Positions 13,585-45,916 of a stretch of DNA of 64,000 nucleotides are shown piece after piece. The position numbers were made by a program, and so were the translations under genes. The DNA is taken from the NCBI RefSeq assembly GCF_008369165.1, contig NZ_VOBA01000001.1:496001-560000 (forward strand). Direction: 5' to 3'. A model generated the notes under the pieces. It had not been told where the DNA came from. It saw only the letters and a program-made list of their open reading frames with translations, and did not search any database. Every line of letters begins with the position of its first letter. Position 1 is the first letter of the stretch. The stretch is from Dietzia sp. ANT_WB102 (lineage in GTDB: Bacteria; Actinomycetota; Actinomycetes; Mycobacteriales; Mycobacteriaceae).

Positions 13585-14510
13585 CCAGCCCCGTCGACAT
13601 CGCCTTCCGCTCCGGATCCGGGGCCGACGCCGCCGAGTGCCGCGGGTGGTTCCTGCCCGCCGCCGGCGCGGGCGCCACCGGCGACGATGGTGACGGGCGA
13701 CGCCCGTGCGTGGTGCTGGCGCACGGACTGGGCGGGACCGCCGACTCCGGGCTCATGCCGTTCGCCGAGGCGTTCGCAGCCTCCGGATACCACGCGCTCG
13801 TCTTCGACTACCGCGGCTTCGGCCGGTCCGACGGCGGACCCCGGCAGGTCGTCTCCCCCGCGCGCCAGCAGGACGACTACCGTGCGGCGATCGCCGCGGC
13901 GGCCGCCCGGCCCGACGTCGACCCGGAGCGCATCGTGCTGTGGGGCTGCTCGCTCGCGGGTGGCCACGTCATGGAGGTTGCGCGGGGCCGGGACGACGTC
14001 GCCGCCGTCATCGCGATGATCCCCCTGGTCGACGGACGGGCCGCCGCCCTGGCTGCGGCCCGCCAGCACACGCCCGCCTCGCTCCTGCGGGCGACGGGTT
14101 CCGCGGTTGCCGCCAAGGCGGTGACGGCGGCGGGTCGCCCCGAGCCGCTGCTCCCCCTGGTCGGCCCGCCCGGGTCGGCCGCCCTGCTGTCTCTGGACGG
14201 GTACGAGGAGGCCTACACCTCCGTCGCCGGGCCGACCTGGCGAAACGAGGTGGGCGCCTCCATCGGCACCGAGCTGGGCTCGTTCCGCCCCGGCCGGCAC
14301 GCGGAAGACCTCGCCGCCGTCCCCGTTCTGGTCCAGATCGCCGACCTCGACCGCAGCGCCCCGCCGCACGCCTCCGCCACGGCCGCCTTTGCCGCGCGCG
14401 CCGAGGTCCGCCACTACCCGGGCGATCACTTCGACCTCTTCGCCGGTCGCCCGTGCCACGACCGGGCGGTCGAGCACGCGCTGCACTTCCTGCGGCGACA
14501 CGTGGGCTGA
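13581..14510 (+). CDS. Alpha/beta-hydrolase (acyl hydrolase/esterase-like)
   Basis: A 309-residue hydrolase. It shows VLAHGLGGTADSG as oxyanion loop, FDYRGFGRSDG, and a nucleophile elbow WGCSLAGG in which the last Gly of GxSxG is Ala. A putative Asp lies in QIADLDRSAPP and the catalytic His in YPGDHFDLF. Its start ATG 13581 overlaps the tetR stop (ATGA) and has GGGAG upstream. In an operon with a monooxygenase it could hydrolyse the ester formed from a ketone, but that is inference; substrate and reaction are not shown by the sequence. Confidence 0.85.
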   Translation: MTSPVDIAFRSGSGADAAECRGWFLPAAGAGATGDDGDGRRPCVVLAHGLGGTADSGLMPFAEAFAASGYHALVFDYRGFGRSDGGPRQVVSPARQQDDYRAAIAAAAARPDVDPERIVLWGCSLAGGHVMEVARGRDDVAAVIAMIPLVDGRAAALAAARQHTPASLLRATGSAVAAKAVTAAGRPEPLLPLVGPPGSAALLSLDGYEEAYTSVAGPTWRNEVGASIGTELGSFRPGRHAEDLAAVPVLVQIADLDRSAPPHASATAAFAARAEVRHYPGDHFDLFAGRPCHDRAVEHALHFLRRHVG

Positions 14511-45330: not shown

Positions 45331-45597
45331 ATGCCCAAGTCAAAGGTCCGGTCCAAGACCGAGTTCACCGATGCGGCTGTCAGCCGCACCCCCGTCAAGG
45401 TCAAGGGAACCCCGACGGCGCGGTGGTACCTGGTGGTCATGTTCGCGTTGATGATCCTGGGTCTGCTCTGGTTGGTGACCTACTACATCGCCGGAGAGCG
45501 CATCCCGTTCATGCAGTCCCTCGAGACGTGGCAGAACTTCGCCATCGGTTTCGGGCTCGCGGTTGTGGGCCTTCTCATGACCATGAACTGGCGCTAA
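45331..45597 (+). CDS. crgA: Cell division protein CrgA
   Basis: An 88-residue inner-membrane protein with a charged N-terminus (MPKSKVRSKTEFTDAAVSRT) and two helices (RWYLVVMFALMILGLLWLVT and FAIGFGLAVVGLLMTMNW) joined by YYIAGERIPFMQSLETWQN. This is the complete CrgA family, which recruits FtsZ, PBPs and FtsI at the division site. TGAACG and TAGAGT (16-bp spacer) upstream form a likely promoter, and CGAGG precedes the ATG. Its place between trpG and the PH-domain gene is conserved in Mycobacteriales. Confidence 0.96.
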   Translation: MPKSKVRSKTEFTDAAVSRTPVKVKGTPTARWYLVVMFALMILGLLWLVTYYIAGERIPFMQSLETWQNFAIGFGLAVVGLLMTMNWR

Positions 45598-45635
45598 CCC
45601 CTCTCCCACAGACGGTTTCCGACTCTTCCACAGGG

Positions 45636-45916
45636 TTATCCACAGGTCACCCCCCGCCCGACGCGGGGGGTGACCTGCATTTTCTCCCCTCATACCTCAT
45701 ATGCGCAGGTCAAGTGCCTCATTGCAACTGAGGCGCAGGCGTTGGTCCGGCTGTTCCACACCCCTCACACGCTGTGGACAACTCCCTCCACACTGGGGAT
45801 AAACCCTTGGTGACAACAATGGGGACGACGCCGCAGGTCGGGCCCGCTCCCAGTCGAACGCCAATCGAACTCCACCCGTGTTATTCATCCACAGTGTGGA
45901 TAGAGCCTGTGGATAA
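45636..45916. other. DnaA-box cluster in the crgA downstream region
   Basis: Three consensus boxes are present: TTATCCACA (45636-45644), TGTGGACAA (45773-45781, the TTGTCCACA form used in mycobacteria) and TGTGGATAA (45908-45916). At least three one-mismatch boxes accompany them: TGGGGATAA (45794-45802), TCATCCACA (45885-45893) and TGTGGATAG (45895-45903). The stretch is visibly less GC-rich than its surroundings and contains no gene. It may titrate DnaA or act in initiation control. The usual oriC beside dnaA is expected beyond the right edge. Confidence 0.7.
45643..45677 (+). terminator. crgA terminator
   Basis: CAGGTCACCCCCCGC (45643-45657) pairs perfectly with 45663-45677 around CCGAC. 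TTTTCTCCCC follows shortly after (from about 45680). One DnaA box overlaps its 5' edge. Confidence 0.88.

What the first reader, a model, noticed from the sequence alone, without database searches (positions are those of the whole stretch)
45636..45916. DnaA-box cluster between crgA and the PH-domain gene, well away from gyrA
Three consensus DnaA boxes (45636, 45773, 45908) and at least three one-mismatch boxes sit in a 281-bp, comparatively AT-rich non-coding stretch. The usual oriC lies next to dnaA, which must be beyond the right edge, at least 18 kb away. This may be a DnaA-titration or initiation-control site, or a relic of the origin. The conserved place next to division genes (crgA, pknAB) suggests a replication-division link.
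Basis: partly seen in the sequence, partly recalled or inferred. Interest (0 to 1): 0.72.

Follow-up and report, generated by a model that had tools for sequence, protein, structure and literature searches.

The report
DnaA control site beside crgA
Near the replication origin of this Dietzia-like bacterium lies a non-coding site where the replication starter DnaA should bind; the same site, joined to the likely recognition sequence of a cell-division regulator, recurs in many related bacteria and may couple DNA replication to cell division.

Summary
The cluster is real: three exact and three one-mismatch DnaA boxes in 281 bp, never reached in 3000 shuffles. It is not the origin: GC skew turns near dnaA, about 24 kb away. 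It matches in position a DnaA-bound region mapped in Mycobacterium tuberculosis and M. smegmatis (Rv0010c-Rv0011c, PMC7738170), whose function is open. New here: its core (45868-45916) is an old composite element. A model built without Dietzia has one strong match in this genome, here (E 5e-11; next 0.15), and matches 63 of 177 sampled genomes outside the order (E<=1e-5). Where crgA was also listed, 43 of 54 lie within 500 bp downstream of crgA; in nine the element is elsewhere. Three boxes, head-to-head then tandem, show the topology of E. coli DARS but other spacing. Box I overlaps by one base a palindrome matching the published motif of McdR (Rv1830), an essential division regulator; in Dietzia its left half is degenerate. 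Best reading: a DnaA-activity control site, more DARS-like than a sink, gated by McdR. Anatomy and conservation are shown; binding and mechanism in Dietzia are inferred. I found no paper joining McdR to this site in the library searched; one likely relevant paper was not held.

The parts
45331..45597 (+). crgA (neighbour; the element lies downstream of it)
   Evidence: Pfam PF06781, E 9.9e-33
45624..45644 (+). tandem pair of boxes 12 bp apart: 45624 TCTTCCACA (two mismatches) and 45636 TTATCCACA (exact)
   Evidence: the pair recurs in the genus alignment
45645..45675 (+). perfect 13-bp GC-rich hairpin (5-nt loop) followed by a short T-rich stretch; terminator-like, after crgA
   Evidence: a perfect 12-bp GC-rich hairpin found in 17 of 21 genus loci; function inferred
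45773..45802 (-). boxes at 45773 (TTGTCCACA, exact) and 45794 (TTATCCCCA), with a TCCACA half-box on the other strand between them
   Evidence: distance from box 45773 to box I is 112 bp in 19 of 19 genus loci measured
45854..45870 (+). two TCGAAC words 11 bp apart, conserved in the genus; role unknown
   Evidence: read by eye
45868..45885 (+). McdR-motif-like palindrome AACTCCACCCGTGTTATT: right half perfect, left half with two mismatches to AATnACAnnnnTGTnATT
   Evidence: motif from PMC9040748
45885..45893 (+). core DnaA box I, TCATCCACA; overlaps the palindrome by one base
45895..45903 (-). core DnaA box II, CTATCCACA, head-to-head with box I
45908..45916 (-). core DnaA box III, TTATCCACA (exact), tandem with box II
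45873..45916 (+). match of model R1, built from 41 non-Dietzia sequences
   Evidence: E 5.0e-11, 44 bits; next in the genome 0.151, 13.7 bits
45932..46399 (+). PH-domain gene (neighbour), counterpart of Rv0010c by position
   Evidence: Pfam PF10756, E 2.7e-6; start codon chosen by eye

Best explanation
It is an origin-near DnaA-control element, not an origin. DnaA loads on a three-box core (I and II head-to-head, III tandem with II) and, in Dietzia, on further boxes at fixed distance. The complex most likely acts in trans on DnaA itself, changing how much active DnaA is available for oriC, by promoting nucleotide exchange as E. coli DARS does. McdR, a MerR-type division regulator, binds the abutting palindrome and, sharing a base with box I, helps or hinders the DnaA assembly, so that the division programme can speak to initiation. 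SHOWN here: the boxes, fixed geometry, conservation, palindrome-motif match, presence of mcdR and a whiB gene with a perfect motif in Dietzia. PUBLISHED for mycobacteria: DnaA binds the corresponding region; McdR binds the motif at other promoters; McdR overexpression raises origin-near copy number. INFERRED: McdR binding at this site, DARS-like action, gating.
For: Orthology: same gene neighbours as the DnaA region Rv0010c-Rv0011c bound in vitro and, by its homologue in M. smegmatis, in vivo (PMC7738170). Model R1 without Dietzia: one strong hit in the genome, at this place, and 13 of 13 genus loci with named records. Outside the order: 63 of 177 genomes at E<=1e-5; with crgA listed for 54 of them, 43 within 500 bp downstream of crgA, 2 within 3 kb, 9 elsewhere. 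Geometry: 39 of 42 genera (one fetched locus each) have I-II 9-11 and II-III 12-13 as the best triple; 3.7% in shuffles. Head-to-head I-II plus III is described as characteristic of and essential in DARS (PMC10380432). McdR motif within two mismatches downstream of crgA in 64 of 78 order loci and within one in 16 of 16 out-of-order loci. The exact palindrome ATTACACNNGTGTAAT was found in 25 of 196 genomes, one place each: 15 in the element, 10 beside a WhiB-family gene. Positive role: published changes in the head-to-head pair phenocopy dnaA alleles whose long cells the authors liken to reduced-function alleles. McdR overexpression filaments cells and raises origin-near copy number. Not local transcription: neither flanking gene changed in dnaA mutants.
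Against: No binding was tested for any Dietzia protein. I-II spacing is 10-11 bp, not the 14 of E. coli DARS1, which turns the two DnaA molecules differently. E. coli datA also has a head-to-head pair, so the topology is not unique to DARS. Place near oriC resembles datA or a sink more than DARS. The M. tuberculosis dnaA mutants showed no change in initiation rate. In the Dietzia genus the McdR left half-site is AACTCCA, with two mismatches in 19 of 21 loci. The McdR paper's main text does not mention crgA or dnaA, and its table of five peaks could not be read. The model finds nothing or only weak matches in several in-order loci: no hit at E<=1 in 12 of the 17 loci L062, L067-L069, L072, L073, L076, L077, L079-L081, L086, L087, L118, L132, L135 and L057 given to it. 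The two order genomes of family f13 have only weak hits.
Confidence: 0.45

Rival explanations
1. A DnaA sink or inactivator (titration, or datA-like ATP hydrolysis). The site is copied soon after initiation and removes DnaA; McdR overlapping box I releases DnaA.
For: Only about 26 kb from dnaA-dnaN; up to eight boxes in genus loci; McdR overexpression raising origin-near copy number fits displacement of DnaA; datA has a head-to-head pair too.
Against: A sink needs no strict geometry, yet spacing is fixed. Loss of a sink should raise DnaA activity, whereas the published site mutants resemble dnaA alleles likened to reduced function.
Confidence: 0.3
2. A local regulator of the PH gene or crgA: DnaA and McdR control transcription here.
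For: In Dietzia box III ends 15 bp before the PH start that I chose; McdR acts at the start site of whiB2 (PMC9040748).
Against: In L187 (another order) the element lies between convergent rhomboid and crgA genes; in L183 between convergent rhomboid and iron-sulphur genes. No PH-like ORF in 16 of 16 out-of-order loci tested (the search model came from the order, so divergent homologues could be missed). Expression of Rv0010c and Rv0011c unchanged in dnaA mutants. Promoters were not scanned here.
Confidence: 0.12
3. A relic or spare origin.
For: Three exact boxes here against one between dnaA and dnaN.
Against: GC-skew minimum 565.6 kb, purine minimum 565.9 kb, parS-like sites 573-575 kb, all at dnaA (the keto minimum, 559.7 kb, lies between the two places). 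No TAG-trio read by eye here, whereas dnaA-dnaN has TAGTAGTAG.
Confidence: 0.03
4. Chance clustering.
For: None beyond the shortness of the boxes.
Against: 0 of 3000 shuffles, genus-wide fixed spacing, independent model match.
Confidence: 0.01

Closest known systems
Mycobacterial DnaA region Rv0010c-Rv0011c (PMC7738170)
   Same: Same neighbours (PH gene and crgA), near oriC, cluster of boxes with a palindrome of two boxes upstream of the PH gene; DnaA-bound in M. tuberculosis DNA in vitro and its homologue in M. smegmatis in vivo.
   Different: Dietzia has a longer array (about 280 bp against a 155-bp intergenic region in M. tuberculosis). The paper reports no correspondence in other bacteria; here the core is traced across the order and into other orders and joined to an McdR motif.
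E. coli DARS1 and DARS2
   Same: Three-box core, I and II head-to-head, III tandem with II.
   Different: DARS1 spacing is +14 -12 - by scan; here +10/11 -12/13 -. In DARS2 the head-to-head pair 14 bp apart was read by eye (first box three mismatches), its third box is unclear. Activity untested here.
E. coli datA
   Same: Cluster of boxes outside oriC; one head-to-head pair (12 bp).
   Different: Its essential parts are described as boxes 2 and 3 with an IHF site (PMC4585315); no IHF counterpart was sought here.
McdR (Rv1830) operator of whiB2 (PMC9040748)
   Same: Palindrome AATnACAnnnnTGTnATT; the exact form occurs both in this element and beside WhiB genes.
   Different: Here joined to DnaA boxes and, where the neighbours are convergent, not in a promoter place; half-degenerate in Dietzia.
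DnaA-box clusters upstream of dnaB
   Same: Second cluster in this genome, rplI-dnaB, at the place that DnaA also binds in mycobacteria.
   Different: Lacks the composite core: best model match there 13.7 bits.

Membership tests
Mycobacterial Rv0010c-Rv0011c DnaA site | lies between crgA and the PH-domain gene near oriC | tested here: met
Mycobacterial Rv0010c-Rv0011c DnaA site | palindrome of two DnaA-like boxes upstream of the PH gene | tested here: met
   boxes I and II, 45885+ and 45895-
Mycobacterial Rv0010c-Rv0011c DnaA site | DnaA binds it | not testable with these tools
   published for mycobacteria only
E. coli-type DARS | three-box core with I-II head-to-head and III tandem | tested here: met
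E. coli-type DARS | box spacing of DARS1 (14 and 12 bp) | tested here: not met
   I-II is 10 bp here; 9-11 in 39 of 42 genera; (14,12) in none of 42 though allowed
E. coli-type DARS | releases ADP from ADP-DnaA | not testable with these tools
   needs purified DnaA
E. coli datA | boxes with an IHF site between, ATP-DnaA hydrolysis | not tested
   no IHF-site search made; activity needs biochemistry
McdR operator | palindrome AATnACAnnnnTGTnATT | tested here: inconclusive
   window: two mismatches, all in the left half; 64 of 78 order loci within two, 16 of 16 out-of-order loci within one
McdR operator | organism has mcdR and a canonical target | tested here: met
   FHA - MerR - BFN - MerR gene order at C1:2500-2502 kb and a WhiB gene with a perfect motif; calling the last MerR gene mcdR rests on gene order recalled from M. 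tuberculosis
oriC | next to dnaA at the skew minimum | tested here: not met

The most novel reading that the evidence does not exclude
A large part of this bacterial class carries, near the origin, a composite DNA switch in which the essential division regulator McdR and the initiator DnaA bind overlapping sites on a three-box, DARS-type core. It would be a DnaA-reactivating element of a new architecture, independent of its neighbouring genes, by which the division programme sets replication initiation; it would join two tuberculosis pathways so far described apart (dnaA/Rv0010c-Rv0011c and McdR-WhiB2).
Probability: 0.3. Interest if true: 0.9.

Novelty: new variant of a known kind. Interest (0 to 1): 0.74.

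Why it matters
The corresponding site in mycobacteria is a hotspot of recurrent clinical change with unknown action (PMC7738170). Showing that its core is old, fixed in geometry and joined to the motif of an essential division regulator gives a concrete hypothesis for that action, offers a possible link to the unexplained rise of origin-near copy number on McdR overexpression (PMC9040748), and lets both be tested in harmless species.

Tried and rejected
Relic origin: rejected on skew, purine minimum and parS-like sites. RNA element: one Rfam match up to E 1, a plant-virus hairpin below its gathering score, taken as chance. Strict pattern TCCACAN{1,2}TGTGGAN{6,7}TGTGGA: 54 of 298 order genomes, many matches not near crgA; in the one that I followed (G201) it lies just upstream of dnaA. 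So the bare box geometry is not unique to this site and I moved to a whole-element model. MtrA as owner of the palindrome: rejected, its published motif is a direct repeat. FtsR (Rv1828) as owner: rejected, its published motif is a different 25-bp inverted repeat. NCBIfam named neither of two WhiB-like proteins; Pfam did. The name whiB2 for them is by likeness recalled, not from a call. Literature: no paper held both 'DnaA boxes' and crgA, nor 'DnaA-reactivating' and Actinobacteria; 23 papers mention Rv0010c and the McdR paper is not among them; the two of these that I searched for resR, Rv1830 or whiB2 held none of them. A Science 2022 paper on the same regulator (resR), recalled, may overlap but is not held.

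Limits of my counts: geometry loci are those fetched for their good CrgA match, one for each of 42 genera; genera without a fetched locus (for example g17) were not tested. The box set included TTATCCCCA, chosen after seeing the alignment, and its shuffles keep single-base composition only. In one search one of 20 scrambled motifs evidently equals the true one (identical counts at zero and one mismatch); without it about 3 of 1482 control scans reach two mismatches. Nine of the 63 stronger hits had no crgA row. The class search used stricter filters and its match list was cut.

Full report
OBSERVATION. Shuffling the 325-bp intergenic stretch 3000 times never gave three exact boxes or six near boxes. 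The genome holds 25 exact boxes against 10 for the reversed pattern.

NOT THE ORIGIN. dnaA and dnaN (Pfam) flank a gap at 567.8-568.4 kb of contig 1; the cluster is at 541.6-541.9 kb. The cumulative GC-skew minimum is at 565.6 kb, the purine minimum at 565.9 kb, the keto minimum at 559.7 kb, and parS-like sites lie at 573-575 kb. A TAGTAGTAG run, read by eye and like the DnaA-trio (recalled), lies between dnaA and dnaN.

THE GENUS. CrgA was found in 21 of 23 genus genomes; all 21 carry 4-8 boxes downstream. Box 45773 and box I are 112 bp apart in 19 of 19 loci measured (a twentieth was cut by my 450-bp limit; the 21st, L043, is the divergent one and was not measured). In 17 distinct sequences mean column identity is 0.94-0.96 in boxes, 0.93 in the palindrome and 0.79 in the spacer.

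A KNOWN DnaA SITE. PMC7738170 (abstract, sections 7, 9, 10 and 12 and passages seen) mapped DnaA on M. tuberculosis DNA in vitro and in M. [quoted passage not shown] Rv0010c-Rv0011c is the PH-crgA intergenic region. This genome has box clusters or boxes at four of the five places: crgA-PH (6), rplI-dnaB (7), rpmH-dnaA (3 within about 50 bp) and dnaA-dnaN (1 exact) (rpmH read by eye); the fifth I did not look for. In that paper a palindrome of two boxes is hit by convergent changes, reconstructed changes lengthen cells and phenocopy dnaA alleles, flanking-gene expression is unchanged in dnaA mutants, and the action is left open between titration and nucleotide exchange.

THE CORE ELEMENT. Aligning the DNA downstream of crgA from other genera of the order showed a shared core, GAATTACATnGnTGTnATTCATCCCCAnTGTGGATAAnnCCTGTGGATAACTC. 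A sequence model (R1) from 41 non-Dietzia sequences has one strong match in this whole genome, at 45873-45916 (E 5.0e-11); the next is 0.151. It also matches 13 of 13 genus loci with named records, 12 Dietzia and one Actinomycetales MAG. Not all relatives have it: of 17 further loci that I gave to it because the element looked weak or absent (L057 included), 12 gave no match at E<=1 and five gave matches of 11-25 bits.

GEOMETRY. Searching each of 42 genera (one fetched locus each) for the best triple of a plus box and two minus boxes with both distances free from 9 to 18 bp gave I-II 9-11 and II-III 12-13 in 39; most often 10 and 13 (26), or 11 and 12 (7), which keep I-III at 23. Thirty-five of the 42 have at most five mismatches in all; 0 of 838 shuffles do, and 3.7% of shuffles show that geometry. 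E. coli DARS1 reads +14 -12 -. Head-to-head boxes I and II are called characteristic of and essential in DARS (PMC10380432, passages). So the topology is that of DARS, the spacing is not; datA too has a head-to-head pair. I therefore say 'works like', not 'is'.

BEYOND THE ORDER. R1 matched 63 of 177 out-of-order genomes at E<=1e-5. CrgA rows were listed for 54 of these: 43 elements lie within 500 bp downstream of crgA (40 same strand, 3 opposite), 2 within 3 kb, 9 elsewhere; for 9 more no crgA row was listed. All nine displaced ones are in one family (f34). In one of them (G535) dnaA is at 0.2-1.6 kb, the element at 10.8 kb, and crgA about 30 kb on the other side of the contig start; there the element lies between a rhomboid gene and an iron-sulphur gene that converge on it. 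In L187 it lies between convergent rhomboid and crgA genes. No PH-like ORF was found in 16 of 16 out-of-order loci. The element therefore does not depend on PH or crgA transcription.

THE PALINDROME. The exact form ATTACACNNGTGTAAT occurs in 25 of 196 class genomes, one place each, and not in the control pattern; 15 places are in the element and the other 10 lie beside a WhiB-family gene. PMC9040748 (abstract, passages, sections 6 and 10) reports that McdR (Rv1830), an essential MerR-type regulator, represses whiB2 through AATnACAnnnnTGTnATT: the same palindrome. It also reports that McdR overexpression filaments cells and raises origin-near copy number; its main text does not mention crgA or dnaA. 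Downstream of crgA the motif lies within two mismatches in 64 of 78 order loci and within one mismatch in 16 of 16 out-of-order loci. Box I begins on the last base of the motif, so the two proteins would touch or exclude each other. This genome has the FHA - MerR - BFN - MerR gene order of the Rv1827-Rv1830 locus (order recalled) and a WhiB gene with a perfect motif just upstream. At the crgA core itself, however, Dietzia keeps only the right half intact (two mismatches on the left in 19 of 21 genus loci, one mismatch at another place in the other two).

READING. Best supported: a trans-acting DnaA-control element joined to an McdR operator. I prefer positive, DARS-like action because strict geometry is kept, because head-to-head boxes are the essential DARS feature, and because published changes in the pair look like loss of DnaA function; but closeness to oriC and the McdR copy-number effect also fit a sink that McdR relieves. 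Biochemistry would decide.

NOVELTY. The mycobacterial site is known. The reach beyond the order, fixed three-box geometry, independence of neighbours and union with the McdR motif were not found in the library searched; subscription papers, above all the recalled Science 2022 resR paper, could not be checked.

Noticed in passing
G000:C1:732711-733000 (L019:12711-13000): Second strong DnaA-box cluster, 7 boxes (3 exact), between rplI and dnaB; the counterpart region upstream of dnaB is DnaA-bound in mycobacteria.
   Followed up: partly
L019 about 13825-14250: dnaB seems to carry an intein-like insert at its P-loop (read by eye; Pfam DnaB_C is matched in two stretches).
   Followed up: no
L036/L052 and L043: Extra copies of the whole palindrome-plus-three-box core, three in L052 and two in L043.
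   Followed up: no
window 45672-45840: GCAGGTC word recurs: TGACCTGCA and GCAGGTCA as an inverted repeat around the foot of the hairpin, and CCGCAGGTCGG before the core; conserved in the genus, meaning unknown.
   Followed up: no
G000:C2:197069-197108 (L022): Two exact DnaA boxes 31 bp apart; genes there were not identified.
   Followed up: no
several class genomes, e.g. G533, G485, G480: Weaker matches downstream of crgA lie on the opposite strand to crgA (13 of the 23 near ones), so the three boxes may be inverted in some lineages.
   Followed up: partly
G000:C1:1387283-1387624: Second, weak hit of the DnaA ATPase family (E 5.8e-5).
   Followed up: no
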